Source: Apostichopus japonicus
Lineage: Eukaryota; Echinodermata; Holothuroidea; Aspidochirotida; Stichopodidae
Direction: 5' to 3'
Length of the DNA stretch: 64,000 bases
NCBI RefSeq assembly: GCF_037975245.1
Contig: NC_092576.1
Location: 15,439,611-15,503,610, forward strand
Shown: positions 24,344-58,400 of the stretch, piece by piece
How the letters are laid out: the number at the start of each line of letters is the position of its first letter
Numbering within the stretch: the stretch's first letter is position 1
Program-made: the position numbers and the translations under genes
The notes under the pieces: generated by a model
Seen by the model: only the letters and a program-made list of their open reading frames with translations
What the model was told of the DNA's origin: nothing
Database searches by the model: none

Positions 24344-24382
24344 ACTGTGTTTTTCTTGTCTGGTAGTGAACTCCAATTCAAA

Positions 24383-30208: not shown

Positions 30209-33200
30209 GTTAATAACGTTTACCCTAACTTGTCTAAGCCCTTGCGTACGCTATTGTAATGAAGGCCTAGGCCTAAGCCCAGGGGCCATCATTCACAGAA
30301 AGTTACAGTGGGCCTAGACCTAACTAAGGCTATGTTTAGATCAGTAGACAGACACGCAGGCCTATTCAAACGTTAAATTTCACTTTTTTTTTCAGGTTGG
30401 TTGTATCAGGAACAGAATATCAGGTCTACAGTAGGCCTAGCTGTATTCCTCAGCTATAGTCGTAGCTGTTCTTAACTCTTTTTCTCTCTTCATAATCATA
30501 CTCATAGATTAATTAGGCTTAGCTTGGTCAACCATTCGGTTCCTGGCATTTACTTAGCCATGCCTATGCCTACAAACCTTGGCTAAATTAACTTTCATAG
30601 ACCATGTAATGGCATCAAGCAAATATTGTTAACTAATAGCCTAGTGCTAGGCCTATTCATTGAATTATATTTGATGTTAAATATTTGTTGTAATTTGGAG
30701 ACCTATGTAATGTTAGGCTGCATTCTGATTTTTTTCAAAGTAATGTAGGTCCTAGACCTAATTGTTGAAAAATATGTTGAATTTCCACCTGGCCACAGAA
30801 ATATTTCACCTGGAACTTTTGTGAATGGTGAAACATTACTGTGAGTTTTTCAGTCTCAGAAGTCGTATCGGCCTAGCCACTGTCCCTGATCCTAGTCAAA
30901 ATATTAGCTCCCATCAGGCAGAGGCGACGTTAAGAAGCTTCGCTGAGTTATGTTTGTGTTGGTATGTAGTTGCCTGAACTGCTACAGTAAGTCACTCTAC
31001 GATATCCCGAAATTTGATTTATAATTGGAGTCATGGCTGTGTAGTAATGTGGTTGTCCATTGGAAAATATTCAAGGTTACAGACTTAATGTTTAGCTGTC
31101 TAATAATAATGTCCTTTACATGCAGAATAAATTATATTATTAATTTAATTTCACTGCTACCGAAGTAATTATCTAATATACAGTACATTGCAATCTGAAT
31201 GCATTTCACTGTAGGCCCTGTCTCATTAAGTTTGTTGTTATTTTATTCAAGTGTACAGTGCATTCAATACAGTTCACATCATGGAATGCACTTTAAAAAT
31301 CACCACTTTGAACATTACATTCAGTGGTACAAGTTTATACGCTCCTCAACATGCACAGTGTGAAGTTGTAATCATAATCAGTAAACCGAAAGCAATTGAA
31401 ATGCATTGAGGGGAAAAGCATAATTTTACAAGACAAGAAATTCTTTCATCAACAGTTGTCACTGGTTCCACGGATGGTATCGGCAAAGCGTACGCTCTGG
31501 AGTTGGCCAGTTACGGACTTAACATTATACTCATCAGCAGGTCAACAGAAAAGTTGGGGAAAGTAGCCAAAGAAATTGGTAAGTCTAGTAATAAATGTGT
31601 TCAGTTTTTCCTTTGGAATGGGGTTGGGGGGGGGGGACTGGTGATGGGAGATGATCATTTACAAGTGTTTTTACGTAATATAAAAATCCCCTTATTCAAA
31701 GTGTTTTGATGTACAACATAATTTTGTACTTAGCCAATGGTACAAGAATTGATGTGAAGATGCTTGAGCAATCTAGGAAAGTTGCTCAGCGGGTAATCAG
31801 TGCTCACTTACCTTCGAACTGAACACAAGCCTATTATGGAAAATCATTGATAGTCCAGACAGTTTCTATGTGCTTAAAACTAGATTCTGATACTGCGAGT
31901 TTTTGTCGTTTTTAAGATGTGATCATGTTCAGTCAGGAAATCAAACTTGTAGCATTCCCCCAACTGGTTGTCCACAGTGTGTCGGAGATCCACAAGGTAC
32001 AATTGTTTAGCGTCAACAGAGTTTTTACCATTGTTAAGTTATATCAGCCTCAGTCCAGTCAGGAAAGCCGATTTGTAGCATTCTCCCGACTGGCAGTTGA
32101 CATTATATTCTGATCCACTACCAAGTCTGCCAGTTTCAGCAGACATTCTAACTAACCAATCACACGGCAAATAGTTGTGCATGTGACCTAAATTTGGTGG
32201 TTCAACTGTTGTTCAGTGTATGGGGTCCGGTTGTTCTTCAAGACAATTGATAACCGTGTCACCGCAGTCAATTGGTGTCGCAACCGATTCCTGGGCGGCA
32301 AACAGCCGTCATAGAGTCTCGGTCTCGTGTGTAGATTCTGTCTGTGCGAAGTCTCTCTGCGGTGGGGACACCATTACAAAACTTAAGATGACTCACTGCT
32401 ATATTTTAATACTGCCATATTTGCAGTGTTCTATTTTTTGGCACCTACTACAGTACCACACTACTTTGGAATGATATCTCACCTTTCTGGAGATATTTAT
32501 TTAAACGATGCCACTTCTGGCTACTACAGCGACATGTTCATTGTGTTGTACTGTGCTGCTTAGTAGACCATGTGTGTGTTGGTTCTGAGGAAGTATATGT
32601 AACCTTCTCGCTTCTCAGCCTTTTGGCTAAGATCATGTGAAGTATCTTTTCCCTTTTGAGGGGAAACCTGATACACACCTGACGATGATCACACAGTCAC
32701 AGTCTTGATGTAAGGGGACTGGGGTTGAGAGCGGATCAGTCAATCGGTTGTTTGGTTTTTAGTACCCAGGTTCTTTCATGGGTGACTTTTCTTAAGAAAT
32801 AAATATATGGCACCGCACTGGCAGGTCTACACTATAGTTGAGGTGCATTTTGCATGTGATGTAATATTAATATATATTTTTGATATAAATAGTGTTGCAT
32901 AAAGATGTAATGACAGTAGATAGACTATATCACGCTATGAACTTTGACCTGCTTCCTATAAAGCTGTACCTGTTGCTTACATTTGCAGAATCTTCCCATG
33001 GAGTGCAGACCCTAATAATAAAGGCAGATTTCGGCCTCGGCCAAGAGATCTACCCATCCATCGCCGACAAACTTGTAGGCAAAGAAGTCGGCATCCTCGG
33101 TAAGCGGTGACATCCACCATAATTCACCATCGATTGTAAACTCCTACAGTCTGTTTTCACATTGCAGCAGTACAGTACAGTAGGTTTGACTCTGGGACAA

Positions 33201-36200
33201 CAAACTTGTTCTAAGAAGAAAGAAATTATATAGTTTGACATGAAAGGTTTCCAAAGAGAAGAGTAGATCAGTACTTTTAATTTAGGGACCAAAAAAAAAA
33301 GAAAGAAATTATGTATCTAGATCTTTAACAAAAGGTATCTGGCAACAATATTTATTTGTAAAAATAATAATAATAACAATACATTAAATTTAGGTACCCC
33401 CCAAAACACGGTATCTGGCAACATTATTTATTCATTATATGTAATATTAATAATAATACATTGTAGATTGGCAACAAGACTAAAGAAATTATATAGTTTG
33501 ACATGGACAGGTTTCCAAAGAGAACAGTAGATCATTACATTAAATTTAGGGACCAAAAAACAAAGCAAATTATGTATGGATCTGAAACAAAAAGTATCTG
33601 GCAACATAATGTATTCGTAATATGTAATAATAATACATTGTAGATTGGCAACAAGACTAAAGAAATGATGTAGTTAGACATGAAAAGGTTTCCAAAGAGA
33701 ACAGTAGATCATTGCTTTAAATTTAGGGACCAAAAAACAAAAAACAAATTATGTAAAGAACTTTAACAAAAAGTATCTGGCAACATTGTTTATTCATAAT
33801 ATGTAATAATAATAATAATAATAATACATTGTAGATTGGCAACATTACACAGCAACAGAGCCACGAGTCGACAGAATCGACATTCGAGAATCATGATCGA
33901 TCCATATTTATAATATGTAATAATAATAATAATTCATTGTAGATTGGCAACATTACACAACAACAGAGCCTCAAGTCTACAGAATTGACATTGGAGAAAC
34001 ATGATCGATCCATATTCATAATATTTAATAATAATAATACATTGTAGATTGGCAACATTACACAACAACAGAGCCACGAGTCGACAGAACCGACATTGGA
34101 GAAACATGATCGATCCATATTCATAATATGTAATAATAATACTAATACATTGTAGATTGGCAACATTGCACAACAACAGAGCCTCAAGTCGACAGAATCG
34201 ACATTGGAGAAACATGATCGATCCATATTCATAATATTTAATAATAATAATAATAATACATTGTAGATTGGCAACATTGCACAACAACAGAGCCATGAGT
34301 CTACAGAATCCACATTGGAGAAACATGATAGATCCATATTCATAATATTTAATAATAATAATAATAATACATTGTAGATTGGCAACATTACACAACAACA
34401 GAGCCACGAGTCGACAGAATCGACATTAGAGAAACATGATCGATCCATATTCATAATATGTAATAATAATAATAATAATACATTGTAGATTGGCAACATT
34501 ACACAACAACAGAGCCACGAGTCGACAGAATCGACATTGGAGAAACATGATCGATCCATATTCATAATATTTAATAATAATAATAATACATTGTAGATTG
34601 GCAACATTGCACAACAACAGAGCCTCAAGTCTACAGAATCGACATTGGAGAAACATGATAGATCCATATTCATAATATTTAATAATAATAATAATAACAC
34701 ATTGTAGATTGGCAACATTGCATAACAACAGAGTCATGAGTCTACAGAATCAACATTGGAGAAACATGATCGATCCATATTCATAATATTTAATAACAAT
34801 AATAACACATTGTAGATTGGCAACATTGCACAACAACAGAGCCACGAGTCTACAGAATCAACATTGGAGAAACATGATAGATCCATATTCATAATATTTA
34901 ATAATAACAATAATAACACATTGTAGATTGGCAACATAACACAACAACAGAGCCACGAGTCTACAGAATCGACATTGGAGAAACATGATCGATCCATATT
35001 CATAATATTTAATAATAATAATAATACATTGTAGATTGGCAACATTGCACAACAACAGAGCCATGAGTTGACAGAATCGACATTGGAGAAACATGATCGA
35101 TCCATTTAATAATAATAATAATTCATTGTAGATTGGCAACATTACACAACAACAGAGCCACGAGTCTACAGAATCGACATTGGAGAAACATGATCGATCC
35201 ATTTTCATAATATTTAATAATAATAATAATACATTGTAGATTGGCAACATTACACAACAACAGAGCCACGAGTTTACAGAATCGACATTGGAGAAACATG
35301 ATCGATCCATATTCATAATATTTAATAACAATAATAATACATTGTAGATTGGCAACATTGCACAACAACGGAGCCACGAGTCTACAGAATCGACATTGGA
35401 GAAACATGATTGATCCATATTCATAATATTTAATAATAATAATAATAATACATTGTAGATTGGCAACATTGCACAACGACAGAGCCATGAGTTGACAGAA
35501 TCGACATTGGAGAAACATGATCTGTTTCATATGTTTTATTGTCGTCCTGATCTGGACATAATGTACATTTGTCGAACTAGGCGGTTATTCATTACCTGCC
35601 ACGCTATAGGCAGCAAATGCCCGTTTGGTTACATTGGAAGTCATCATTTGCAGTATGTGGATGGTTTGATAAAAAATGTTGCCAATTTACAATGGTTCCA
35701 ATACAAAGTACTTCTTTATAATTAGAGTTTAATATTTGACAGGCGTATGAACGGAAACCGTTGTGGATAAAAATAATCCACATCGGAGAGAAAAAAAGCA
35801 TCAATGCACTGATAAGCGATGATACTAATTCCTCAGAACTTTGCTGATGAATTTTTGAAGAAATCTTGTGAAATGTGACTTGTAGCAAAGTAAAATGCCC
35901 GTACATGTAAAGTAAGAAAGGGCTTGTATGGTAAGACTAGATTCTAACTTTGTAATCTCATTTTGATTTTAAAGAACTTTTTACATTTAAATATATTCAA
36001 AAGTATTACCTGTAGGTTGATGAAAAATGTTGCTTTTGCAGAATCTTAGAGATCTGAGAAGTGGCTTAATTTGAAATTATATAAAACAGAACCATTAGCT
36101 AACTGTACTTCTCGTTCTGTTTTGAAACAGTGATCAGAAGATCTTACTTGAGAAACCTTTGGACGTTGTCTCAGCCATGTAAAGACTTAATTGTAGCTTC

Positions 36201-39200
36201 CAAAATGAAAGAAGGAAAAGAAAACAGAAATTGTTTCAATGTTAGGAACCTTTTTTTTTTATCCGTTTTCTCGTTTGCTTTAATATTTTTACCATGAAAT
36301 CTTTTTCTCCTGCTCAGTAAACAATGTCGGTGCCATGGACTATCCCCAGCTCTTTCAAGAGGTCCCTATGGAACGACTCTGGCAACTTATTAACATCAAC
36401 ATCGGGGCCGCGACTCTGGTGAGTTTGTAACCTATAATGAGCATGCAAATCATGATATCAAATGATTTGATAATTTGTTAGAATATATAAAATTTAACTA
36501 TGGAGTTGGCCTTCAAGTCATATTGAATGTCATGTGTCTTTCCAATTTTTTTTATCAGGGTCCATTCCAAAATCCTAGCTTTTGGGAAAGGAAGTGGATC
36601 GTTGATTAAAACAAAGTGCAGTGTATCTCAATTTTCACCATGGTTATATGAATTAGGCCTTTAAGTAATTTTGTCCGCCTTCAAGTTATTTTGAATGTCA
36701 AATGTCTTTCCAATTTTCTTGGTTCACGGTCCATTCCAGACTCCAATTTGACTCAATTTGCACCATTGTTATATGAATTATTTTCTCCATCCTGTCCTCG
36801 ACTGAACTCGTAATGCGTCGGAAACATGTTATAGGACGACTGATGGTGTATTAAAAATTCTCTTGTTTCCCGTCTTGACATTTACGTGTTGTATTCTGAG
36901 AAATTCACTTAGAGTAAGAGGTCTGTGTATACTGTGTTAGTCTCAGTAGTCCAGCCACTTCAATTCATGCGCCTCAGATGTTTAAGAGGTCATTTCTCTA
37001 AAATATTTAAAGTGGTTCAGAATTGCAACATGCACTGATAGCAATGTTCTTTTTTTTTTTGTATTATGGTCTACAATGTATCAAAATATAATTTGTACTA
37101 CAAGTCATCCTTTTATAATGAATAAGTAGAAAGAGATACCGAACTTGAAAATTCCAGTTAAATGGAAATTTTTTTAAATTTTTTTTGCTTTGAATTTTGC
37201 TCAGAATTTTTGAATATTTTTTTTCTTCATCAGATGAGTCACTTGGTGCTTCCCAAGATGGTTGAGAGGAAGAGAGGGGCCATCATCAATATATCTGCCT
37301 CTGCATCTATTTATCCTAACCCACAGCTTGCCGTCTATGCCGCCTGTAAGGTAAAGTACAGACTCATAAAAGATTAATAATAATAATATTTAATATTTGC
37401 TTTTTATATAGCGCTTTATACCAGCGATAGGTCTCAAAGCGCTTTACAGTTGTTATATTACCCCTGGTCAATGATAACCTGTCCCAGAGACAATCCCTCC
37501 AGTCGGCAGCAGTTATATACTGCGCCCAATGGTAAGTTACCTCACAGGTACCCATTTAAACCCCTGGGTGGAGAGAGGCAAGTGAGATTAAAGCATCTTG
37601 CCCAAGGACACAATGTAACGAACTAGGCAGGAATCGAACCAGCTATCCTTGGATCACGAGTCTGACGCTTTAGCCAATTGGCCACCACGCCCTCATTAAT
37701 GCTGAATTTCTTTTCTTAATGTCATATATGTCTTATCGCTACACATATATATAAAGTTGATTATGAAACAGGACCGAACAAGTCATTTTTATCTCAATAC
37801 ATTACATGTATAGAGATATTGTAACAGTAAGTGGGACTCTCTCTTCTCTTAAAAATTTTTCAGCGTCTTCAAACAAAGTTCTTTTTCTCTGGAATTTCCA
37901 GAGCAAGAATATATCATATAGACCAACAAAAGTTACTATTTTTTATTCCAGAATTGTATCTCATTCTGTGACTTTTTCACCGATTTATGTCCAAATCGGG
38001 CCAATTTGGACTGAAAACACACTTTGGCAGACCTGTTTTGCACACGCTCCAAAACTTATGTTTTATGAAAGAGAATAGAATAGAACTGTCTTTCAACAGT
38101 GGTATCGTCTAAGATAGGGTCCTATGTATTATATATTTTATTAACATTTTAAACTTTCATTTGTTGTTTACAGGTAGGTATTAATAAGAATTTTACTACC
38201 TGTATATGACATTTTATGGCTTTTATTTGCTTTATTTGATGGTTAAATGATTTTTCTTTCTTAAAACAACACTGAGCTGCCGCCCCTACTTTTAGTAAAA
38301 AGGTCCGTTTTTGATGATTAAGCCCCGCCCCCAAGTCTGCTTTGTAGCAGATTGGCTATGACTCATAACAGCTACATGTTAGATATACGAAAATGGCTAC
38401 CCTCGCGACCAATTTTCTGTAGTGTAGTTAGGTACGCGAGGTGTTAGTGTATTGCATGCTAATTACATTCTGTACTGCTGAATTCTACGTAGTGCATTTA
38501 ATTTATATTAGGCCTTCGTTTTTGTAACATCCATTTAAGGATAGTACTGGTGTTCAGGTAGCTTTTCAGAGCAAGGGCCATGATAAGTTTGTTTGATTGC
38601 CCTTCATGTATTTTGTATAATTACGTATATACATTATTGTATTTCTGAAGGCTACTTACTGTAGGCCTAGTGCATTTAAAAAAATATATATCTAGGCCTA
38701 GGCCTATTAGGCTTTCAGTGATAGCCACATTAGCATTGTACTGGTGTTCAGACAGCTTTTCCTAGGAAGGACCAGGGTAAGTTTGTTTGATGGGTACGTA
38801 TAAAAGAGGAGCCGGCCATAGCATCACAACTTTTATAAGACTATAAAAATTGTATAAGGTTATGTTTTATTTATAAGGATATAAGATGTATAAGGTAATA
38901 AGAAGTATGTTTAGCTTTCTTTTGAACCTGTAATGTTTGACATCAAATGTACAAAGAATTAAAATAAAATAACAAAATGGAGAGGAACTGAGGTGGCTAT
39001 TAGGGGAAGAGGAGGCCACCCATCACTTGCATATAAAAACTTGTAATCTTCTTTTACATTATTTTTTCCAAGTCATAAATCCATGAAATCTTCATGTCCG
39101 AAAAATTGAGATGGAAAAACGTGGGTTGTTTTGATATCTAGAAGTGGACACAGTTTTGATGGTAGTCACCACTACAGTAACATACAGTAGGTCAATAGGC

Positions 39201-41861
39201 CTAGCTCGCAAGGCAGGCATCAAGAATATGGTCGAGTTGTTCGCCTCTTCTAATTTGGCTGTTGTCATTGACGTCAAACTATATGACCAAAAAGTCCAAC
39301 AGAGACTGACCCAAGATGAAGGATACCACATAAAAAACAAGTTCTTAAATATTCTATGACATTACTAAACCTTGCAACGTCGTTCTTTCGACTAACAGGC
39401 AATGAGCGCTAAAGGCAAGACTAGCAGGATAAAGTGTAACCTGCAGAGACTATTCGTGGCAAAGTAGCAAAAATGCAAGTTATATGTTTGTTGTACCATG
39501 ATTGATATTGATAATTGTAGAGACAGAGCAAAGATTTGAAATTAGGAATCAAAATTAAAACTTCCAGTATTGAGATACTGCATCATTGATGCTCTTGTTC
39601 TCTTTGTTCTGTTCCGATTTCGAACAGACTTACTTGGATTATTTCTCGAGGGCTCTGCAATACGAATGCCGGAATAAGGGCATCTTTGTACAGAGCCTCA
39701 TGCCATCCTACGTAGCGACCAAGATGACAAGTATCGACGTTGGGGGAGGAGGCGGTGGCAAGAAGATGAGTCTGTTGATGCCCTCGGCATGTGAGTATGT
39801 CAGACACGCAGTCTCGACATTAGGTGTCACAGCCAGGACGACGGGTTATTGGCCACATGCAATACAGGTGAGTTTGGTCGAAATCCTCACTGTATTAACG
39901 GACTCTGTTATAATAGCATATGTGTATACTTACAGAGTATACTTACAGAACAACAGGTTATTGGCCACATGCAATACAGGTGAGTTTGGTCGAGATCCTC
40001 ACTGTATTAACAGACTCTGTTATAATAGCATATGTGTATACTTACATAGCATACTTTGAGTATACTTACAGAGTGTACTTACAGAGTATACTTACAGGAC
40101 AACGGGTTATTGGCCACATGCAATACATGTGAGTTTGGTTGAAATCCTCACTGTATTAACGGACTCCGTTATAATTGTAATACAATTTACAAAGTATGGT
40201 GACAAGTTTGATCGCAGTGGTGACTCCAGCTGGGATTTGCATATGTGTACATACTTACAGAGTTTACTTAGAGTATGCTGCAGAGTATACTTACAGTATG
40301 CTTACAGAGTATACTGTTAGTATGCTTACAGAGTATACTTACAGAGTATACTTACAGAGTGTATTTACAGAGTATACTACAGAGTATACTTAAAGAGTAT
40401 ACTGTAAGTACACTAACAGTATACTCACAGAGTATACAGTATGCTTACAGAGTGTAATGTAAGTATACTTATAGCATACTTACAGAGCATTCTGTAAGTA
40501 TGGTTACATAGTATATTAACAATTTACTTAATGAGTATACTGCTTGTATACTAACAGTATACACAAAGAGTATACTTGGAGAGTGTACTTACAGTATGCT
40601 TACAGTATGCTTACAGAGTATACTGTAAGTATACTTACAGAGTATACTGTTAGCATACAAACAGTATCCTCACAGAGTCTATTTACAGAAACATGTCAGC
40701 CAGTCTGGATTTTCTGTCCTTGTTATTGAAAATTTGGATGCACAATATGGAAATACAATTTATATCTGTATAACCCTTTTTCTTTCGTGCTCTGGTTCTT
40801 CTAAAATAATAATGCCTGTTTAAGATTTAACCAAACATCCAGTAGTATTCCATCTTACTTTATATCCTCATACATGTGAATGTTTGTGTAAGTCAGAGAT
40901 CCAAAACAATCTGTTTAGCAAAAGATAAGTTATGATGAAATATAGAACATAACTTGATGTGAAGCTCAAATTTAAGATTGATTATTTGGAGTTGAAAGTA
41001 TTGATCATATTGGAAAGTATTGATTTGGTGCATAAAATAATCATTTTTTTACTAAAAAAAAAAAAGATAAAGAAAAAAAAGCAGGAAATGTTTTGCAAAG
41101 TTGGCATATCTGTTTAATTTTTAAAGAGAACTTTTATGGTCGTAATTATGATTGCAGTTGTAATTACAATAATTATTATCGCAAGAATGATAATAACTTG
41201 GTAGTTATGAATTTAATTTTCAACTGTTGACGACAAGTACGTTGGGATTTGTGTCAAGAAAGTATGGATAGACTTAAAGGTAGTCAGTATTGGCCCCAAA
41301 TTATAGCACACTATAAATTGCAAGAAGTTTTCAAAAAGTATTTTCCTGGAGGTCTTTACTCTCCAAATTGTTCTCAGACATTTTAAGGAACACACAAGAT
41401 GACTGAATGTACCAGTGAGGAAAAATTTCCTCAAAGTTTGTAACAAACACAGTTTAAGATTTTTGACCAGAGGTGACCATATTTGAATATCTAGCATATT
41501 TGGGGCCAATACAGCATACCTTTAATCATAGTGTATATATGGTTGTAATGATGATATACATTGATGATTGCAATGATGATACATTGATGATTGCAATCAT
41601 GATAACATGGTCTGATTACGATATGATTACAGCTACGGTTACGCTGTTATATATGTTGGATTCTTATGTGGCCATCTCATGTATCGTTGTCTTTTTCGGT
41701 AGATGTGGATTTTCCAGAAAATACCTGAAAAGTATTGGTTATGGGGACAGAGTACCTTGAACACCGCCCTGAGACGACAAGCTTCAGCCCGCAAGAGGCA
41801 CAAATCCGGTTCCAGAAAGCCCTCTTCTGTTAATCCACCTTTCGTAAGCCCAACATCCTGA
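30001..41861 (+). CDS. HSDL1: HSDL1-type short-chain dehydrogenase, 7 exons, complete
   Basis: Hydroxysteroid dehydrogenase-like protein 1 is an SDR-family protein related to HSD17B12/HSD17B3; the vertebrate form is described as inactive and mitochondrial. Exons: 30001-30208, 31456-31578, 32989-33099, 36318-36418, 37234-37350, 39628-39867, 41703-41861; GT-AG throughout, 1059 nt, 352 residues plus TGA. The start MAAAVDSF matches vertebrate HSDL1. Seen: NAD(P)-binding TGSTDGIG (72-79), NNVG (149-152), Ser in INISASAS (200-206), YAACK (Y216, K220), then [20 protein letters not shown] and [11 protein letters not shown], specific to HSDL1 rather than HSD17B12. Odd: Tyr216 is present where the human protein is known to have Phe, a Gly run sits in exon 6, and the C-terminal tail is basic and longer than in human (about 330 aa). 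Confidence 0.93.
30209..31455. other. HSDL1 intron 1, no gene
   Basis: AT-rich with several taggccta palindromes at 30268-30655. Nothing else recognised. Confidence 0.6.
31456..31578 (+). CDS. HSDL1: HSDL1 exon 2, cofactor-binding motif
   Basis: [20 protein letters not shown], then [12 protein letters not shown]. Acceptor tcaacag, donor gtaagt, phase 1 in and out. Confidence 0.93.
31612..31709 (+). repeat. 92-bp dispersed repeat, copy 2
   Basis: Same unit as 26427-26518 with an expanded G run. It lies just after the exon 2 donor of HSDL1. Confidence 0.75.
31710..32606. other. HSDL1 intron 2, nothing else recognised
   Basis: Contains a diverged local duplication around gtcaggaaatcaaacttgta and gtcaggaaagccgatttgta (about 31933 and 32056). 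No coding signal. Confidence 0.5.
32607..32792 (+). ncRNA. U2-headed snRNA-like sequence, copy 1
   Basis: The first ~35 bases (cgcttctcagccttttggct, aagatcatgtg) match the 5' stem-loop region of U2 snRNA; the rest does not. The body is shared with 57586-57769. A T-rich Sm-like stretch (ggtttttag) precedes a terminal hairpin (acccagg/catgggt) and tttt. The branch-site-pairing word gtagta is changed to gaagta here. In HSDL1 intron 2, same strand. Either a small RNA gene or a SINE with a U2-derived head. Confidence 0.5.
32989..33099 (+). CDS. HSDL1: HSDL1 exon 3
   Basis: Reads [20 protein letters not shown], then KEVGIL. Acceptor catttgcag, donor gtaagc, phase 1 in and out. Confidence 0.9.
33180..33835. 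repeat. ~180-bp tandem repeat leading into satellite
   Basis: Three diverged copies of a unit with gacatg-aaggtttccaaagag, tttagggaccaaaaaa and agtatctggcaacat (near 33237, 33500, 33678). Its end is the start of the ~108-bp satellite unit. Confidence 0.75.
33836..35521. repeat. ~108-bp satellite array, about 16 copies, in HSDL1 intron 3
   Basis: Each unit holds cattgtagattggcaacatt, acaacaacagagcc, cgacattggagaaacatgat and a variable (AAT)n run. Copies begin near 33830, 33938, 34042, 34148, 34258, 34369, 34480, 34588, 34700, 34808, 34918, 35024, 35125, 35232, 35339 and 35449. Copy length changes mainly by whole AAT triplets, which keeps long minus-strand frames open without meaning. Confidence 0.95.
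35522..36317. other. HSDL1 intron 3, 3' part
   Basis: AT-rich, no repeat or gene recognised. Confidence 0.5.
36318..36418 (+). CDS. HSDL1: HSDL1 exon 4, NNVG motif
   Basis: [17 protein letters not shown] and [14 protein letters not shown]. Acceptor ctgctcag, donor gtgagt, ends in phase 0. Confidence 0.92.
36419..37233. other. HSDL1 intron 4
   Basis: Contains a short direct repeat (ccttcaagtcatattgaatg near 36509 and ccttcaagttattttgaatg near 36679, each followed by tttccaatttt...ggtccattcca). Nothing else. Confidence 0.55.
37234..37350 (+). CDS. HSDL1: HSDL1 exon 5, catalytic Ser and Tyr-Lys
   Basis: [20 protein letters not shown], then [19 protein letters not shown]. Catalytic Tyr codon TAT at 37336-37338. 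Acceptor ttcatcag, donor gtaaag, phase 0 both sides. Confidence 0.93.
37372..37692 (-). mobile_element. tRNA-derived SINE, family D, in HSDL1 intron 5
   Basis: Read on the minus strand: tRNA-like head with B box ggttcgattcc, central block ttgtgtccttgggcaag, 3' part aaagcgctttgagacc, then agcgctatataaaaagc and an (ATT)n tail. The central block is shared with the SINE at 45976. This 3' end style is widespread in marine invertebrate SINEs. Confidence 0.85.
37693..39627. other. HSDL1 intron 5, 3' part
   Basis: Contains a diverged local duplication around tactggtgttcagg (38545 and 38742) and four taggccta words (38662-39203). A 71-codon frame at 39144 shows no family resemblance and is not called. 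Confidence 0.5.
39628..39867 (+). CDS. HSDL1: HSDL1 exon 6
   Basis: 80 codons: [24 protein letters not shown], a GGGGGG run, [16 protein letters not shown]. Acceptor gaacag, donor gtgagt. The last bases and the donor recur twice in the following intron. Confidence 0.92.
39841..40140 (+). repeat. Partial tandem duplications of HSDL1 exon 6 end plus splice donor
   Basis: ggttattggccacatgcaat begins near 39844 (true exon), 39956 and 40104. Each is followed by a gtgagtttggt donor and the same downstream intron sequence (atcctcactgtattaac). The third copy reads acat|gtgag instead of acag|gtgag. Confidence 0.92.
39925..40690. repeat. Short-unit minisatellite agagtatacttac in HSDL1 intron 6
   Basis: Dozens of imperfect 12-16-bp units built from cttacag, agtatac and gtaagtatac. 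The palindrome gtaagtatacttac appears in several units. It surrounds the exon 6 end duplications. Confidence 0.9.
40691..41277. other. HSDL1 intron 6, middle part
   Basis: AT-rich, nothing recognised. Confidence 0.5.
41278..41521. mobile_element. TTAA-flanked MITE (244 bp) in HSDL1 intron 6
   Basis: TTAA lies on both sides (41274-41277 and 41522-41525). Terminal inverted repeats of about 24 bp: left aggtagtcagtattggcccc, right complement aggtatgctgtattggcccc, then aaat. No coding capacity. The TTAA target suggests mobilisation by a piggyBac-type transposase; that is inference. Confidence 0.85.
41703..41861 (+). CDS. HSDL1: HSDL1 exon 7 and stop
   Basis: [20 protein letters not shown], then [19 protein letters not shown] and TGA at 41859-41861. 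Acceptor ttcggtag. The Trp-rich/leucine part fits the HSDL1 C-terminus; the basic tail is extra. Confidence 0.88.
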   Translation: MWIFQKIPEKYWLWGQSTLNTALRRQASARKRHKSGSRKPSSVNPPFVSPTS

Positions 41862-48095: not shown

Positions 48096-48097
48096 CT

Positions 48098-48180: not shown

Positions 48181-48257
48181 AACACGTTTAAAATTTCTTT
48201 TTCTATTTCTTTAGTCGACCCTGAAGTCTTGATATATTAGTTCAACCATTAAAATTA

Positions 48258-48640: not shown

Positions 48641-49884
48641 TATTAAAAAACACCCCGTTTCAAACTATCGCCATCGAATACCTCAAAAGCCGTTTTTTCT
48701 TGTCACTCTGAAGGTGGAAGGGATTTGATTGTAATTGGTTATTTGTGGTAGGCCACATTCAAATAGTCATGCAGTTCACTAGGGTTTGCAGGAACTTAAT
48801 TAAACTTATTGTTTGACATAAATGTGTTTGCAAGATTTACACAACCTACACTAAAACAAGCATTATATTCGTTGCAATGCCAGAGACATACAAGCCAGTA
48901 AAACCATGAGATCAACTTTAAATATACATAAAATTCAATATATATAACTTTTGCAAGAAAACCAAAGTGTACCAGTGTCAATATGGTCCCATTATAAGCA
49001 ACAGTGTTGTAGCAAAATTATCATACCGGAAAGTAGGTAGTTCAGGAAACTGAGTGATACTTAAGAACTTTTCTTGAGATTCACAAAAAAAGTATACCCA
49101 TATGTGATTTCATAATTTCAGGAACAAAATTAACTTTGATATGCCGTGGACCGTTATAAGTCACTACTCGCGGTCTAGCTAGGGTTGTATAGCACATTAC
49201 TTATTTTTTGTTTGTTCTTTGGAATGACCTTTTAAACAGTTGAGGTTCACTAGTTAAAGTGACTGGACCTTTTAGTTTACTACATAGCCCAACAGACTAA
49301 TTCCTCAGTTGCACTACAAAAGTCAATGGGAAAAATTAAGATCATATGGTCTCAAATGACATGTTTATAATTTATTACAAATTTGCATATATGAATATTA
49401 ACGAACATATTCTGGTTGACCTCAAAAACAACGGATCAACATTAACTATAAGAACTGCAGTGAGGAGCCGACGTCACCATCAAGTTAGCCTAAACGAATA
49501 TTCCAGAAATTAAGTATATTTAACGATACATATCTTGAAAAATACTGGAATAGCTACAGAAACATTATTGGACTCAAACTTGTCTGTATTGTATGTATAA
49601 TAACATATCAAGACTAAAATTCTGCCTTATTCATTATTTAATTAATTAAAGTGAGTTATCAAGTTACATCAAAATCTATCTGTCGATCATTCTCCCATGA
49701 TTGCATACCGGGGATACTTGAAAAAAAAACTCACCCACGAAAGAACATGGGCACGAAAACCAAACTACCGAACGTTTGATCCGCTCTCAAACCCAGTCCC
49801 CTTGCATCGAGACTGTGACTGTGTGATCATCGTTAGGTGTGTATCACCATTCCCCTCGAAAGGGAACAGATACTACACATGATC
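48641..49884. other. Intergenic, no gene seen
   Basis: AT-rich, nothing recognised. Confidence 0.5.
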
Positions 49885-50020
49885 TTGTATGTATGTATGT
49901 ATGTATGTATGTATATGTGATCTTCCCGCAAGCAGGAACTCGCGAAAGAAGCCATGGAGGCTTATAGACTCGCAAGCTGACCGAAGCCAATCTCTCGGCA
50001 CACATCCATTTAACGTCCAT
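49885..50020 (-). mobile_element. SINE family A, copy 3, 5'-truncated, minus strand
   Basis: Reading the minus strand: atggacgttaaatggatgtg, cttcggtcagcttgcgagtc, cgagttcctgcttgcgggaa, then a catacata tail. The tRNA head is missing, as expected of a 5' truncation. Confidence 0.85.
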
Positions 50021-51770
50021 ATCTTCGGGGTATCTTTAACTCTTCGGTTTATCTGTTCGTTGTACACGTCTCAGGATAAAACTAGTTTGATCTCGGAAGA
50101 ATGTTATCCGATTCCTTGTTCTTTGTTCTATTTGTTTTACAAGTCAATTGACTACATCCTGATGAAGAATAAATGAAGAAAACCGCCATTACTCTAATAC
50201 CAAGTAGTCCTCGTTATGTCCAACACATAACACACTAATGGACTTTATCGATACTCATTGAAGAACCACATCTTCCTTATTCGAAACAAGTTTATAACAA
50301 TAGAGATAGATTAATGCCATACAAGTGGTAAATTTGCTTTCATATTACTGAAACCTATACGACAAGATGTTTATGCTATTTGAGCAGTCCAGAATTCTCA
50401 GTGAACGTTTAGCGTTTTAATCGGCGTCCGGTAACACGTATTGATGACTATATAACGACGAAAGACATTAAGCGCACGGACATTAATATCCTCTTACTTG
50501 ATATACGTATGTGAGGCTCATTTGAATCCATTATTACCATTTGCTGTAATATAAACTTTGGCAGCCCTAAATCTATAAACATTAACACTTAGATTGTGTT
50601 TCTATGTTGTTTAGTTACATAAATAAGACATTTTGTTGTCAGAGTCCATTTCAAACTCACATTTAGTCAGCCTAGTGTTGCAATGGCAACGGTCTTGATT
50701 GAGCTCGAACGTGACCTTAAATGGACCTGATCTTGAGCTCAATCAACCAGAAAGTCTGAAATATATATGCCAAAGACACATTGATGGAGTTTTCATGTTG
50801 TTTAGTTACAATGATATGAATTATCTTAAATTCCCTCACATTGTTTTGAAGCATTGTCCGTACGGTCCTGATTGGGCATAATAAAAACCTTAACTGACTC
50901 AGATCTTGATTGCAATCAACCAGGCACTATTCATTTGATGTGACTAAGCACTACAAGATTGTTACAGCTGAGGGTCCTAGCTAACCGAAAAACAACGTGG
51001 GTGAAAATCCCTTAAGGGAAGGGGTGGGGGTCCATTGTTCTTTGTTTTCCGTAACTGTAATTTTTCTCAGTTTACTTGAACGTTTTACCTATTGTTAGTA
51101 GTTAAATTGGAAACTTGCATGTCGAAAATTTCAAATTTTCTTCTTAAATGTCGCATTGCTTTCAAGTCGTTACCGCTTGCTATGATTGCACTCCTAATTT
51201 GAAATAAGGCTGCTTTCAGTATTTTAGTCGTCCCAATATTTCAATATTTGACAGAGTCTTGTATATCCTTAACCATTACTATGGTGCTGAAAGATTCTTA
51301 TTACAGGAATATTTTAAGGTGAAATTTTAATTTTAATATGGGGGGTAGACTTTATCATGACATAAAAGTCTTGTGTTTATTCTATTGAGTTGTTACACTA
51401 TAGACCTAAGTAGTTAGTTTAACTGACTAATAGGACACTTGTTTAACGGTGTTCGGCATATCAAAATTCCTTTAACAGGGAGTTGTTCAGGGCCCTTATA
51501 TAAGTACCAATTATTCATCAAGTGCATGGACATATAGCATGGGTCTGGGGGTGATTGAGGGAATGAATGGGGAGGAGGGGGGGGGCGTTAGTCCCACACC
51601 CAACTCCTCGAAGCGGAAGACGAAAAATTACTATAGACCACATTAATAACAACAAGTGCGGTAATTAATTCATAACATGACATTCTTTTCCAAAGAAATA
51701 TTGCATGTGCCATCTAAACCCATTGATAATGATTGTCTCCTGTGATTTTCCACCTAATTAATAATTTCTG
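50021..51770. other. Intergenic, no gene seen
   Basis: AT-rich. gattgagctc/gagctcaatc words form a small inverted pair near 50697-50743. Nothing coding. Confidence 0.5.
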
Positions 51771-52884
51771 ATGTTAGGGTTTATTTTGTTATTCTGCATT
51801 CGTTTCCTTGATATATTCAATGTTAGCTGTAACTACCGGAATATTCAAAAATTTGCGATTAAAGAAGATACCATCACATCTTCCCGTTGCGTTGTAGTAA
51901 CAGAGAACGTAGGAACCACGAACGCAAAAGTCGACATGATGCTGACCCTATGAAATGTGACGAAAACATCATTCAAGAAAATTGATATGGATTCTGGAGT
52001 ATTCCTTTTTGCTCCTGATTTCATATTTTACGAGCACTATGTTATCATTGTTGGTCAAACTATACAAATCAGTGTTATTGCATCTGGGTGGATACTTGTT
52101 GTAGCTTTGGTTTTCAAACCTAATCCAGATATTTCCGTTTTTGTTGTCCTTTCTGTGGAATCTACATTCATATGAATTACAAGATTCATGATATTTTGGG
52201 ACGTAAATTTGGATCCATTTTCTATTATCTACTTGATAATTTCGTTCGGCTTTAGCGTAAATTGTTCCTTTCATATTGCCTACGGTTTCAATGTACTACA
52301 TAATGAAACTTCTCTTAACCGTCTGGGATTGAGCTTTGGGGTTTTTGGTTATCCAATTGTTCAAAGTGCCATATCATCAGTATTAGGTACTTTTACTGTT
52401 TTCGCCTGGCTACCTTTACCAATCATTTGGGAAAGTTATCATATTAGCGATGACATTTGGTCTCCTTCATGGACTCGTATTTTTTCCACCTCTCCTTCTT
52501 CTTTTGAATAAAATAAGTAAAGATGGAAATTCTAACCCCGAAGATTACCCACCTATACCAGGTGCAAAAAGCAATTTTCTTTGTAGTTTCCTGTATGAAG
52601 ATAAATCAACCGAATGTGAACATGACAGTAGAAGTGAGGCAGACTCCCCCTCGGTAATCTTCACTGCAAACAATTTTCGCCCTTCAAACGACAGTTCTCA
52701 ACATGATGACGACCGTGAACTTGGAAGCGACAGTGCAGAATTATCCTTTTCGGAAGAGCTTGTTCCCGGCATTAAATTTTACGATGGAATATCCTCCATT
52801 TTCTTTCGGGAAGACTCCGGTCCACACATAGAGTGCTTTCAACCAATCATTGACGACAATGACATAGCAACCTTCTATGTCTGA
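51771..52884 (+). pseudogene. Patched-domain (PTCHD-like) pseudogene, C-terminal half
   Basis: Patched-domain proteins are RND-type transporters with a sterol-sensing domain. In one frame: SRCVVVTENV then TTNAKVDMML, FAPDFIFYEHYVIIVGQTIQ, FWDVNLDPFSIIYLIISFGF, SVNCSFHIAYGF, LGLSFGVFGYPIVQSAISSV. After a one-base frame change near 52415-52430 the match resumes with SFGKVIILAMTFGLLHGLVF and FPPLLLLLNK, then an acidic cytoplasmic tail to the TGA at 52882. Two in-frame TGA codons (51951-51953, 52173-52175) sit where relatives have Arg and Gly, one base from CGA and GGA. No N-terminal half or introns seen. Recent decay or assembly error are both possible. Confidence 0.82.
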
Positions 52885-53858
52885 CCACATTCAATTCTGA
52901 TTTGTTATGATTTATTGTATGATTGTACATAACAAGTGAATTTTATTCAAGACATGGAAAGTTGCCGGTCTAGGGACTATAAACAAATTGTTTGAAATTA
53001 ACATTGAATTATGGATTTTTTCTTTATTTTGTAAATTATCTCTTACTTTTAAACCTGAAGTCTGTAAGTGCTTTTTGAAATTTTACAAACATGTTCTGCT
53101 CAAAATGGAAACCGATTCAACTGACAGTCGATTTTTGTTTTATTTGGAAGTATACTTGCTCAGCAGCTCTTAAGTTGTCAGGTTCTGTCACTCGGGTGTG
53201 CAGGACCTTACGTTTTCATTCGTACTGCAAACTAAGTGGATCAATAGGAGAAAACTGATTACAGAATGCAATTTCTTTCCAGTCTTCACTGCACATCACA
53301 TTCGTTTGGCGCTTATTGTATTGTTACTTCTTGTTTTATAATCAAATGATCAACAAATTTCTTACTTTTTTTTTGTACCTTGGGAATAATTTTCTTGACG
53401 GAAAAGAAAAGAAAGTCCTGACAAATGATACTGACTGATATCATATTGTCATAATTTAGAATCCAGTTGTTAAAATTTGAGAAGTGAGTAATAACATTGA
53501 ACAACCATAATGTCAAATCATAGTTTGGGGTTTGGTGATGTTTTATGAAACTCCACGCATCACCATTAGTACAAAGAATCATGCCAATATATACATATAG
53601 CAAATTCAATTATAAACTGAAAGCGGCATTTATAAAGTGTCCTTTATAGCGTTCATTGATTTATGAATAGTGAAAATGTGTCAAATTGAATGACATGACC
53701 CTATGCATTTGGTCGCATGACTTCCGGTTCTTAACCAATGGAGTCGTCCTTCGACTGACGACTGTTCGTTTGCTATTACGTAAAACGATTAAGAGGAAAA
53801 TATTGTATCGCCTTCGTAAGCAACATACTATATAGTTCCTACGTTACATGTTAATAGT
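52885..53858. other. Intergenic, no gene seen
   Basis: AT-rich, nothing recognised. Confidence 0.5.
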
Positions 53859-54085
53859 AACGGTGATGTGGCCGAGTGGATAAAGGCGGTGGCATTTGAA
53901 GCAACGAGGCTTAGTAATTGGGAGGTTCCGCGTCCGGCCGTGTCATAGTAAAGTGGGTTTTTCATCATAGAGCAATCTACGCTTTTACCATCTGAAATGA
54001 CTTTCTAAATCGAAAAGATTCCAACTTTGAGTTAAAATGTTGAATTGGAAGCCACTAGATGTGTAAGTTGTAATCATCATCATCA
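53859..54085 (+). mobile_element. tRNA-derived SINE, family B, plus copy
   Basis: Exact A box tggccgagtgg, a long variable region, a degenerate B box, and a body with gtgggtttttcatcatagag, tctgaaatgactttcta and tgttgaattggaagccact. The tail is (catcat)n. Same family as 20645-20852. Confidence 0.85.
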
Positions 54086-54690
54086 TAATCATCATTATTA
54101 TTAATAATCAACTCTGTTTCAACGTAGTAATAGTTGGTGAAAATAATATCCATCGTGAAATGAAAACAGAGAGCAAATCTTGCTCATTGGTTCTGTAACT
54201 TTTAACGCATTTTGGACAACAACTTTTGACTACCACTGTCTCTGATTTTATTACTAGATGGAGAAAATCTATGAATATGAAACATAATTACAATCCCATT
54301 GTGATTATTTTATTATTACTATTATGATAATTATTAATATTATGGGATTTAGTCTTCATATTGAAAAAAATGTTGATGAAAACGTGCAATGTTAATATAT
54401 GCCGATTAAAATTTAACTCGGTATAAGACGCATGCATGATTGCTTTCGTTTATTTATTTTATATTTTAAAGACCAACGGCACTAAAAAGGGATGGGTAAT
54501 GGCATGTGAAAGGGATAAAAACAAAACATGACAATGATGATAAGATTATTACAGCTCATATGATTTGTTCAATATAAATATTACAAAGTTTGACTATACT
54601 GTTGTGATTGCATGTGATTCACACGTACCGCTTCCGTCTCAATACAATACAATCACGAAGTAACTGATTTGTATCTCGTTCTGTCCGATC
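54086..54690. other. Intergenic, no gene seen
   Basis: Very AT-rich with ATT microsatellite; nothing assignable. Confidence 0.5.
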
Positions 54691-55231
54691 GAAGATGGCG
54701 TATGATTACTAGACATATTATTATCATTCTTTATTAATATTCATGTTAACTGCATCACATTACTGAAACAAATTACAACCTTAAACATGTTTCAGTATCG
54801 AATCTTTTTTTATATTTAAATGTATCGGTTGCATTGATTCATTGGATTGTACGAAGTAAAATAGTTTTCTTTAAGTTGGATATATAAATAAATAGCGGGT
54901 AGCAGACGCACAATATTTCCTGTGTCGGTTGCTATGGACAGTCGTCCGCTAAATAGTTAGAAGGAAGATGCCTTATGGTTACTAGGCATATGATCATTCT
55001 TTATTTATATTCATGTTAACTGCATCAAAATTAATTTAATAAATTACAACCATAAACATGTTTCAGACTCGAGTCCTTTGTTTCATTTGAATGTAACGGT
55101 CGCTTCCATTCATTGGATTGTAAGAAGTAATTCATTTAGTTGGATATATAGACCAATTAGATGGCAGACTCACACTATTTACTATGCCAGTTGCTATGGA
55201 CAGCCGTCCGCTAAGTAGTTACATTTGGCTA
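54691..55231. repeat. 273-bp direct tandem duplication
   Basis: Copies at about 54691-54963 and 54964-55231. Shared words: tattcatgttaactgcatca, aaacatgtttcag, cattggattgta, gttgctatggacag, cgtccgctaa. Diverged by substitutions and short indels. No coding frame. Confidence 0.85.
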
Positions 55232-55433
55232 TAGACAGCACTTGCATGGATTCCGCGATATTTCTAGAACGGCTTGGGTAATGGCGGACGTACGACGCTC
55301 ATTGGTTGCACATGCTGAGTCGATGCGCTGACATTGTGTATTCCGAGTCCGCCAACACATCTATCTATAACTTTACAACTCCATCGATATTTTCCACTTC
55401 TGCTCAAACGAAGAGAGATCTGAAGTATACTCA

Positions 55434-58400
55434 TCATGATTGCTCGGTGGAAGTTAGACACACGCGTGAAGCATCCCCGCCAGGTTTGTGACCTGCGCGG
55501 AAAAAAAACAAAATGTGTGAGAAAGTGAGAGATCACAACGTTACGTCAATCGGCAGCGGTCATAGACAAACAAGAAAACTGCTAAACATTATTTGTCACC
55601 GGTGGCGCACGCAAGGGGCGGGCCCCACCATTATCACCAGTCTGGGGAAAAACCTTCACTTTGGGAATTTTCAAGAGTAGCCTACTTATTCGTATAATAT
55701 TGTGTTTAGACCTAACTATATAGAACTATACTTATTTATATTCTAAATATGCCTCATAATGCACAATTTGACCTCTAAACTTTGATTTCCTGTTGTCCTG
55801 TTGGGAGGATCCCACACGCCTCTACCTGGCAGTCGCATTCAACCCCCAACCCCCCACCCGACCTCTACATATGTCTCATTCTTAATATCTTAATCTATCT
55901 GCCAGTCCATTAATGTTCATGTCCCTATACCAAAAACGAATGAGAGGGAATTTTGATTTTATTCTTCAGACAAGAACATGAGAATGTTGTTTGCCTTTTC
56001 TGATGGTGGTAAAACCTCCGTTCTAAATTAATCGTAAAAATATAGCTATGTCTATGTAGACAATATAACACTGCCCTCTCATTTATCATACCGAAACGTA
56101 TAATGAAACATTTTACTGCAACAAAAGTCTAACCCGAGTTTAATAACAAACAATAAATCACAACTTCAACAAAGACGATGGTAAAGCAACAAACCAATAA
56201 CATACCATCATAAGCATAATAAACCTCATATACATAAATGAGTTTGTGATTACCGTGTTTATCATTGGTTAGATCATCGCATATTTGTACATATTGGGCT
56301 GACTTTATAAGTTTCTCTAGGGCAGGATTCCACCAATCAGATAACCGCGAATCCTTTCGATGCATGACCGCTGGACCTTCTGTTGCACATACCCTTGATG
56401 ACGTCAATGGTTGGAGGTGGGACAAGAGGATGGGATGACTGCTACAAAATGCAAGATCAATCTATATAAAAAAGAAGAAAAAGACAACATGAAGGGATAT
56501 TCAAGCTGGTAATGCTTATCAATGCTACGCGAAGTCATCATGTGATTTTTTTCCACCATTCTGAAGAAAATTTACGTTTGTACATTAAAGACCGTCTGCA
56601 GACACTTAATTTGTTTTTATACTAAATTATAGGCCGTTCAAAGCACTGCTACCAGGTTTTTATTTTATATTTCTACGTTGTATTTCTGTTGTTTTGAGAA
56701 ATGACCATTTCAACAGCAATGGCTCATCAATCAAAGTTGCTAAATTAATCCTCTGATCAAAATCCTCTTTTACTCAGCTGTAAGATCATTTTGTTTGAGT
56801 TTCAGTTCGAAGAGAATTAAAACAACAACAACAAAAACAATCGAATAATATTTCAAATTAGACTGAGAAGACAACGTCATTTTCCTATTAGTCTGAAAGG
56901 AAAGAAATGATCTTTTAAAGATACTTTTCAATTTAAGGGAATGTCTTAAAACCAGACTACCGATATGAACTCTTCTCGCACCCGAAGCTTCAACCTTATT
57001 TTTGTTGTAAGACTACGACGCGTCAACTCTGAATCTTCACCTTGTCCTTGTCAAGAGTCTGGCTTTCTGTGCTCACATTTTATGGTTTACAATACCCGGC
57101 TAAAACTCAATTTCTCTGATCTCAGATTACCGGCTCCCTGTAGTGTTCACTGCTTATGAGCGCCCACCTGTTGCCTGGGTAGTTCACTAGATGGGTGAGT
57201 ATAGATGTTTACGTGTTCGCTTGCAGTACATGATTGCTTACTGTTTTTCTGTGTATATTGCTCTGAGATTGCATGGCTGCTCATTGGTTGAATGAAGTGT
57301 TACTGAGCCAAATGATTGCATACTGGTTGCATGTGTTCCCTCTGATGCACTGAGTGTTAAATGGGTTGCATTAGATCCATTGTGTATATATGTTTGTATG
57401 GCGTTTCACTATACTACACAAGTGTTCATCGGTTTACAAATCTTCTTTCAGCTGTTGTACGAGTGTTGACTTGTTGCATATATGTCCGTTGCTGTCATCA
57501 GTGTTCACTGGTTGAATGAGCCGTCACTGGTTTACATGTAGATCTCACCTTAGTTAGCATCATGTGTAGCATTATGTTCTTCTTGATCGCTTCTCGGACT
57601 TTTGGCTAAGATCATGTGTAGTATCTGTTTCCTTTCGAGGGGAATGGTGATGCACACTTGACGATGATCACACAGTTACAGTCCCGATGCAAGGGGACTG
57701 GGGTTGAGAGCGGATCAGTCGTTCGGTAGTTTGGTTTTAGTGCCCAGGTTCTTTCCTGGGCGACTTTTTCTTAAAAAGTATCTCACCTGATGCATCAAGT
57801 TTTACTGGTTGTGCCTAAGTTACTATCTGGGTTGCGTGCAGCGTTAAGATATTGAAAGTGTATTCAATTGTATATAGTATAGCTTGCGTGTTGATCGCTG
57901 GTTGTATGAACGATCAGTGGTTGCTTGATGAATAACTAAATGAGGCTTCACCCCCTGGCATGAGTTCAGCGCGTAGGTGTGTTCTCTGGTTGCATGAGTG
58001 TTCATTGAATGAGTGTTCGCTAATGCTTGAGTATTCACTGGTAGATGAGTGTTAATTTGTACGAGTGTTCACTTGTGCTTGGGTGTTCATTGATGCATGA
58101 GTGTTCACTGTGTTGCAAGATTGCTACCTGGAGTTATGAGCGTTCACTGGTGCATAAAGATCAATTTTCACACAATTAACACGATTTGTACACCAATGAC
58201 GTGAACGTTCACCGGATTACAAGAGTGTTCACATGGTTGCTCAAGTGTGAATAACATTTAAGCTGAACAACGTTTACGTATTTTGTATTCACGATAAGCC
58301 TGCACGTAACGTATACATCTGATGAACAGTTATGATTATTGATTGAAGGCTGTTTCAATAACATAACTATAAAAAATGATTTCATATTAATTAAATCCAA

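What the first reader, a model, noticed from the sequence alone, without database searches (positions are those of the whole stretch)
32607..57769. U2-headed chimeric small RNA or SINE, two copies with structure-preserving changes
Two sequences 25 kb apart (32607-32792, 57586-57769) begin like the 5' stem-loop of U2 snRNA and then share an unrelated body. Copy 2 has a perfect agtccc/gggact stem; copy 1 has agtctt/gggact, where two C-to-T changes become G-U pairs. The terminal hairpin changes its outer pair from A-U (copy 1) to G-C (copy 2). Such changes suggest selection on an RNA fold. SINEs with snRNA-derived heads (SINEU type) are known; the alternative is a new snRNA-like gene family.
Basis: partly seen in the sequence, partly recalled or inferred. 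Interest (0 to 1): 0.75.

Follow-up and report, generated by a model that had tools for sequence, protein, structure and literature searches.

The report
U2-headed SINE nesting in U2 genes
The two sequences are copies of a mobile element present in about two thousand copies or more in what is very likely a sea cucumber genome; its U2 'head' most likely comes from the splicing-RNA (U2) genes into which the element itself inserts, which would explain how a retrotransposon can borrow a promoter it does not carry.

Summary
Both units begin with U2 sequence (family consensus: 45/45 nt identical to host U2 nt 1-45) and share a ~150-nt body; a third copy lies at 49715-49886 (-). It is a SINE: 1,999 genome-wide matches to a 25-nt body core (reversed control 0), target duplications, constant 3' end, 5' truncations. 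Copies decay neutrally: stems mutate as fast as loops and pairing is not preserved, so the 'structure-preserving' argument fails. New here: the same body sits inside promoter-bearing U2 genes of the host's U2 array, ending at U2 nt 38|39, the site that several LINE families occupy in the same array (the one read in full is APE-type, Keno-like). A U2-promoter transcript of such a gene would begin with the SINE's head. One dispersed locus has U2 nt 39-50 between two bodies, as expected of RNA from a U2-resident tandem. Dispersed targets resemble the U2 site weakly (A|TYT). Most likely: a U2-gene-nesting SINE, transcribed from U2 promoters, mobilised by Keno-like LINEs, with leaky dispersal. Not shown: transcription, direction of traffic, or which LINE disperses it (the U2 LINE tail searched for was found only around the U2 array). 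New variant of snRNA-headed SINEs.

The parts
32608..32651 (+). copy 1, U2-derived head (U2 nt 2-45)
   Evidence: alignment to family consensus and host U2
32652..32801 (+). copy 1, SINE body and tail (ends ...CTTAAGAAATA)
   Evidence: whole copy 90.7% to the consensus typed from 45 copies
57586..57630 (+). copy 2, U2-derived head (U2 nt 1-45)
57631..57780 (+). copy 2, SINE body and tail (ends ...CTTAAAAAGTA)
   Evidence: whole copy 95.4% to the consensus typed from 45 copies
   Evidence: 93.6% to consensus

Best explanation
The units are copies of a ~195-nt SINE. Its home is the U2 snRNA gene: it inserts between U2 nt 38 and 39, the site used by the LINEs found in the same array. A U2 gene carrying the insert keeps its promoter and U2 nt 1-45 (nt 39-45 being the start of the target duplication), so a transcript from the U2 promoter is U2(1-45)+body+...AAAAAGTA: exactly the dispersed SINE. 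A U2-targeting, APE-type (Keno-like) LINE reverse-transcribes this RNA by target-primed reverse transcription. At a U2 target the head would pair with identical upstream DNA and leave no second head; at other A|TYT-like sites the head is inserted with the body, giving the dispersed copies, which lack a promoter and then decay neutrally. Shown from sequence: SINE hallmarks, head identity, U2-resident copies at the LINE site with promoter, weak target preference, neutral decay. Inferred: Pol II transcription from the U2 promoter, LINE identity, direction of traffic, head-assisted 5' joining.
For: Copy number and dispersal: 1,999 core matches (1,064 +, 935 -; control 0) and 1,324 head-junction matches (control 0). 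TSDs: score >=7 in 37 of 65 full-length copies against 9 of 319 shuffled flank pairs; with the tail anchored, 26 of 76 against 0 of 377. Constant 3' end, variable 5' ends. U2-resident bodies: 8 genome matches to the SINE-tail/U2-nt-39 junction, 6 in the C16 U2 array, none for the reversed control; 5 promoter-bearing U2 genes read directly, with exact U2 prefix 1-40, 1-42, 1-45, 1-45, 1-53, then body, then U2 from nt 39. LINEs at the same site: LINE A (APE endonuclease, RVT_1, zf-RVT; ORF1 zinc knuckle) with U2 1-50 | element | U2 39-; a related LINE (about 44% aa identity) and a more distant one (about 25%) also end at U2 nt 39 in, respectively, 3 and 5 of 14 further stretches read. L137 on C5 holds U2 nt 39-50 between two bodies. 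Dispersed targets: A before the TSD 23 of 26, T first 48 of 76 (p=2e-9), TC 16 of 76 (p=5e-7). Dispersed L042 is 99.3% identical to three C16-resident units.
Against: No RNA data. The LINE tail GAATAAACTTGAAAGAAAAGTATC was found 15 times, all on C16 between 30.885 and 31.163 Mb (up to 2 mismatches, so tails with an indel are missed), so the U2 LINEs with this tail do not disperse like the SINE, and another LINE could be responsible. The body has no detectable homology to the LINE sequences tested, and none of 19 other reverse-transcriptase loci read resembles it (19 chosen from 150 scored of 6,993 candidates). The four C16-resident copies that keep the 5' part have a short 5' loop (e.g. CCCTTAGGG), whereas 43 of 84 dispersed copies have exactly CCCTTTCGAGGGG and only L042 has the short form among those the loop pattern recognised (63 of 84); their diagnostic signature is not among the 25 commonest of the 85 dispersed copies. 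So they are not direct parents of most; only the diverged U2 locus on C20 (L136) carries the dispersed-type loop. No clear target preference beyond A|TYT. 28 of 65 or 50 of 76 copies lack a clear TSD, both full-length window copies among them. The direction, U2-resident source to dispersed copy, is inferred.
Confidence: 0.77

Rival explanations
1. Template-switch origin: a LINE reverse transcriptase jumped from the body RNA onto U2 RNA once, making a U2-headed SINE that spreads on its own; the U2-resident copies are merely some of its landings.
For: snRNA heads added to SINEs are reported for crocodilians (Kojima 2015, content recalled; title seen in the reference lists). The dispersed copies sampled mostly differ from the C16 U2-resident units in loop and diagnostic sites.
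Against: The head ends at nt 45, within a target stretch starting at nt 39 that is duplicated by insertions actually seen in U2 genes, and L137 carries U2 nt 39-50 between bodies; a random template switch predicts neither. No internal promoter is apparent.
Confidence: 0.15
2. Classical Pol III SINE: the U2 head supplies an A-box-like internal promoter and the U2 insertions are incidental.
For: TGGCTAAGATC in the head matches a degenerate A box (consensus recalled) at 10 of 11 positions; but the reverse strand, where no promoter is expected, has an 11 of 11 match.
Against: Best B-box match is 7 of 11, and several other places score as high; no tRNA in 8 copies tested with ARAGORN; TTTT/TTTTT lies 11 nt before the element's end and would be expected to stop Pol III before the conserved CTTAAAAAGTA (sequence; inference).
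Confidence: 0.06
3. A functional snRNA-like gene family under selection on its fold.
For: The full-length consensus folds stably (z -3.6 and -4.2, host U2 -4.0).
Against: Neutral substitution pattern in stems; the body alone is weaker (z -1.2 and -1.9) and a single copy, L109, gives z=-1.9; dispersed copies have TSDs, truncations and unrelated 5' flanks.
Confidence: 0.02

Closest known systems
SINEU of crocodilians (Kojima 2015, Genome Biol Evol; paper not held, content recalled)
   Same: SINE with a U1- or U2-derived head; as recalled, mobilised by a target-preferring Tx1-clade LINE (Tx1-Mar).
   Different: As recalled, SINEU prefers a Mariner element, not the U2 gene, and has other bodies; here U2 genes that carry the body at the LINE site are seen directly, which suggests how the head was obtained. 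Body sequences were not compared (no SINEU sequence available).
Keno, U2-specific APE-type LINE (passages of PMC4640811)
   Same: Same U2 3' junction (U2 resumes at nt 39) and an APE-like endonuclease in LINE A here.
   Different: Keno is autonomous; the SINE is about 195 nt, has no homology to LINE A beyond the last AAAAGTA, and shares its site. Clade membership of the LINE was not tested by a tree.
Utopia, U2-specific LINE with restriction-like endonuclease (passages of PMC4640811)
   Same: Same U2 site; some families show weak specificity with U2-like targets elsewhere.
   Different: Different endonuclease class from LINE A (APE).
R2 SIDEs in 28S genes (PMC3414825; search listing and start of abstract only)
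   Same: Non-autonomous parasites nesting in a multicopy RNA gene and using its transcript.
   Different: SIDEs are internally deleted R2s; R2 has a 5' ribozyme that frees it from the host RNA. Here no LINE homology is detectable and the host RNA stays on as the head.

Membership tests
SINE (retroposed short element) | high copy number, dispersed on both strands | tested here: met
   1,999 core matches, control 0; 1,324 head matches, control 0
SINE (retroposed short element) | target-site duplications | tested here: met
   37 of 65 vs 9 of 319; 26 of 76 vs 0 of 377
SINE (retroposed short element) | constant 3' tail with 5' truncation | tested here: met
   of 37 core-selected loci (40 less 3 flank duplicates), 33 reach nt >=185, 15 start at nt <=6 and 22 later
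SINE (retroposed short element) | internal Pol III promoter | tested here: not met
   A-box-like 10/11, B box at best 7/11, no tRNA in 8 copies; consensus scans only, no transcription data
SINE (retroposed short element) | 3' end shared with a partner LINE | tested here: inconclusive
   only AAAAGTA shared with LINE A; negated-tail patterns found 17 places (control 0) and 7 (control 7); none of 19 other RT loci resembles it
SINEU (snRNA-headed SINE) | head derived from U1 or U2 | tested here: met
   45 of 45 nt identical to host U2; Rfam E=1e-7
SINEU (snRNA-headed SINE) | common descent with the crocodilian families | not tested
U2-site-specific element (Keno/Utopia site) | U2 sequence resumes at nt 39 after the element | tested here: met
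   6 of 6 junctions in the C16 array
U2-site-specific element (Keno/Utopia site) | most copies in U2 genes | tested here: not met
   6 C16-array junctions against 1,999 core matches genome-wide
Keno (Tx1-group LINE), for LINE A | APE endonuclease and U2 target | tested here: met
   PF03372, RVT_1, zf-RVT; U2 junctions
Keno (Tx1-group LINE), for LINE A | position in the Tx1/Keno clade of an RT tree | not tested
snRNA gene | snRNA promoter in front of the copy | tested here: not met
   dispersed copies read have unrelated 5' flanks; met only by U2-resident copies

The most novel reading that the evidence does not exclude
A SINE can obtain both promoter and head from its landing site: the tandem U2 array acts as a nursery in which body-bearing U2 genes are transcribed as U2, trans-mobilised by U2-specific LINEs, re-inserted precisely into U2 genes with the help of the U2 head, and, when targeting leaks, scattered as thousands of U2-headed, promoterless SINEs. 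snRNA-headed SINEs in general would then be fossils of snRNA-gene-nesting elements rather than of template switching.
Probability: 0.5. Interest if true: 0.75.

Novelty: new variant of a known kind. Interest (0 to 1): 0.6.

Why it matters
SINEs need a promoter in their RNA, yet U1 and U2 genes have external promoters (general knowledge), so how snRNA heads could sustain a SINE is a puzzle. Here a candidate missing link is visible in one genome: promoter-bearing U2 genes with the SINE body at the site used by U2 LINEs. It gives a testable route for birth and upkeep of snRNA-headed SINEs. It may also bear on annotation: the assembly paper that matches this genome lists only 159,644 bp of SINEs (0.02%), less than about 2,000 copies of this one family would be expected to fill (estimate), and U2-like heads can score close to the Rfam U2 cut-off.

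Tried and rejected
Selection on the fold: tested on 84 copies and rejected. An inverted-repeat origin of the body from the U2 head: head-body pairing is not clearly better than chance (56 and 68 of 1,000 shuffles as good). tRNA origin of the T-arm-like 3' hairpin: no support. Partner LINE by shared tail: two patterns with positions negated against the SINE gave 17 places (control 0), which look like diverged or rearranged SINE copies but were not fetched, and 7 places (control 7); 19 other RT loci, chosen from the 150 scored, showed nothing. The eight copies 2.7-4.1 kb apart on C5 turned out to be one insertion (into another SINE copy) in a tandem segmental duplication, not a gene array. Master copies behind the C15-type U2 promoter: 4 U2 genes found, none with the body. 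Kojima 2015 is not in the library. Searches for a published description of such an element listed none that I recognised; only passages of PMC7245038, PMC4640811, PMC8010984, PMC5753468, PMC10344927 and PMC5638244 were read; the other listed papers were not opened.

Limits: one search scored 40 of 2,016 candidates. The 84-copy alignment mixes copies ranked by likeness to copy 1, copies chosen for a perfect body core (which fixes part of one stem arm) and copies chosen for a perfect head; of 98 copies passing the length filter 13 flank duplicates were dropped, and one further fragment (L013:252-415) was left out. The 65 copies still contain a few flank duplicates; the 76 are what remained of 120 hits after dropping flank duplicates, unrecognised tails and short flanks. 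Pattern lists show only the first places; the counts are whole.
Full report
What is there. Copy 1 (32608-32801 +) and copy 2 (57586-57780 +) are real and 88% identical; a third, 5'-truncated copy lies at 49715-49886 on the minus strand. The consensus of 45 copies is U2 nt 1-45, then a body of about 150 nt ending GACTTTT(T)CTTAAAAAGTA. The host's own U2 genes form an array with a 645-bp repeat on the same chromosome as the window (C16, around 31.0-31.17 Mb), plus at least 4 genes on C15. The consensus head is identical to this host U2 over 45 of 45 nt, including T at nt 30; Rfam U2 recognises the head at E=1e-7.

Which genome. Cytochrome oxidase 1 on the 16,099-bp contig reads open over 517 aa under several mitochondrial codes; table 9 (echinoderm) gives what I recognise as a normal COX1 (my reading, no alignment made), and the gene order, read by eye from the open frames with nad1 and nad2 on the same strand as cox1, fits sea urchins or sea cucumbers (class assignment from memory). 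Size (671,581,487 bp, 35 contigs, C16 46.04 Mb, C23 18.20 Mb) fits the published Apostichopus japonicus assembly (671.6 Mb, 23 chromosomes of 18.21-46.02 Mb, 34 scaffolds; passages of PMC10344927). The name is an inference.

It is a SINE. A 25-nt body core has 1,999 matches at up to 2 mismatches (1,064 forward, 935 reverse; reversed control 0) and a 29-nt head-junction pattern 1,324 (control 0). Target duplications: score >=7 in 37 of 65 full-length copies, 9 of 319 when flanks are paired at random; with the 3' end anchored at the tail, 26 of 76 against 0 of 377, 7-20 bp long. Of 40 loci chosen for a perfect core, 3 were dropped as flank duplicates (two of the remainder, L078 and L079, look alike too); of the 37, 33 reach the tail, 15 start at nt 1-6 and 22 later, and the median identity to the younger consensus is 93.3%. 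Several loci carry two or more units in tandem.

No selection on the fold of copies. In 84 copies, private substitutions hit stem positions at 94 of 2,602 cells and unpaired positions at 268 of 8,424; 22 of 94 stem substitutions keep a pair against 26.4 expected. In two cells both sides changed and still form a standard pair. The full-length consensus folds stably (z -3.6 and -4.2; host U2 -4.0; body alone -1.2 and -1.9), one real copy less so (z -1.9).

Where the head comes from. Dispersed copies read here have unrelated 5' flanks, often ending in a TSD. But a 56-nt pattern of U2 promoter end + U2 1-45 + CCC finds 69 places, all on C16: 63 at two mismatches read as normal U2 at this point, and six differ. 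Reading them shows SINE body in four (31021932, 31059492, 31132509, 31133952) and LINE-related sequence in two (31145425, 46% aa identity to ORF1 of LINE A; 31097100, 28% to its ORF2); one of the 63 (31134735) also carries SINE body, after U2 nt 53. The converse pattern, SINE tail joined to U2 nt 39, finds 8 places: 6 in the C16 array, one at a diverged U2 locus on C20 (L136), one in a dispersed tandem on C5 (L137). In all six array junctions U2 resumes at nt 39; in five of them the U2 3' part is identical to the array U2 for all 155 nt, in the sixth (behind a LINE 3' end) for 53 nt. A further internal junction lies between two tandem units. Target duplications at the U2 site are TCTGTTC (39-45) where the prefix is 1-45 (one copy with a substitution at nt 43), TCTGTTCTTTTCAGC (39-53) in the truncated copy, and only TC in one tandem copy.

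The site is that of LINEs in the same array. LINE A (L138) has U2 1-50, an ORF1 with a zinc knuckle, a 1,162-aa ORF2 with APE endonuclease, RVT_1 and zf-RVT, and ends ...GAAAGAAAAGTA|U2 nt 39. Of 14 further stretches read in and near the array, one shows the same tail before a U2 remainder, three end ...GAAAGAAAGTA|U2 nt 39 with ORF2 about 44-46% identical to LINE A, five end ...ACATTAAAAGAAA|U2 nt 39 (four of the five with a 24-25% match to ORF2 of LINE A), one has the tail followed by only U2 nt 39-50, two have intact U2 and two no U2. PMC4640811 (passages) states that Utopia and Keno share their 3' flank, that U2 downstream of Utopia in Phytophthora starts at nt 39, and that Keno has an APE-like endonuclease. 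LINE A is thus Keno-like; I did not build a tree.

Dispersed copies bear the mark. After the tail GTA, the first base is T in 48 of 76 (background 0.30), TC in 16 of 76 (background 0.048), and in 23 of 26 copies with a clear TSD the target base before it is A; U2 has GTA|TCTG. Beyond the third base I see no likeness. L137 is the strongest single locus: head+body, then head+body, then U2 nt 39-50 joined to a third body, with TTAATAA-like flanks. That U2 stretch is expected of RNA from a U2 gene with bodies in tandem; one U2 gene with two bodies is seen at 31021932.

Mechanism and its weak points. I propose: U2 promoter transcript, LINE-mediated target-primed reverse transcription, precise re-insertion in U2, leaky dispersal. 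Against it: the tail GAATAAACTTGAAAGAAAAGTATC occurs 15 times, all on C16 at 30.885-31.163 Mb, so these LINEs are local while the SINE is everywhere; the four C16-resident units with a 5' part carry a short 5' loop, found in one (L042) of the 63 dispersed copies whose loop could be read, and a diagnostic signature (ATCCTAT in 5 of the 11 units, which include L136 and L137) not among the 25 commonest of 85 dispersed copies, so they are not parents of most dispersed copies, although L042, which lies about 1.2 kb from a U2 gene on C15, is 99.3% identical to three of them; the body shows no homology to LINE sequence; and there is no RNA evidence. The diverged C20 U2 locus with the dispersed-type loop shows that such a unit too has sat in a U2 gene.

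Novelty. snRNA-headed SINEs (SINEU) are known from crocodilians (title in reference lists; content recalled). I found no description of this family or of a SINE nesting at the Keno/Utopia site in the searches made, which cover only open-licence papers. I rate it a new variant of a known kind.

Noticed in passing
G000 C16:31021140-31028100 (L129, L138), C16:31145425 (L132), L139-L149: The U2 array houses at least three LINEs with different 3' tails (GAAAGAAAAGTA, GAAAGAAAGTA, ACATTAAAAGAAA) that all end at U2 nt 39.
   Followed up: partly
L043 (C16:31013707-31016899), index 2142 of the reverse complement: A promoter-bearing U2 gene is interrupted after about nt 31; the locus holds sequence 45% identical to ORF1 of LINE A, so a LINE may have a 5' junction there that differs from nt 45-53.
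   Followed up: partly
C16:31041967-31042731 and 31047280-31048044 (-): A different LINE with a 961-aa open frame lies between U2 genes of the array; frames of the same length and score also lie on C7 and C17.
   Followed up: no
C5:11042000-11066300 (L090-L096): Tandem segmental duplication of 2.7-4.1 kb units, each with the same SINE-in-SINE insertion (eight units read in part).
   Followed up: yes
C29:14745-31219: Fragments of COX1 in a rearranged order on a small contig, perhaps a nuclear or assembly copy of mitochondrial DNA.
   Followed up: no
window 24302-25525 (+): A 407-aa open frame with a RING finger (PF00097, E=4e-11).
   Followed up: no
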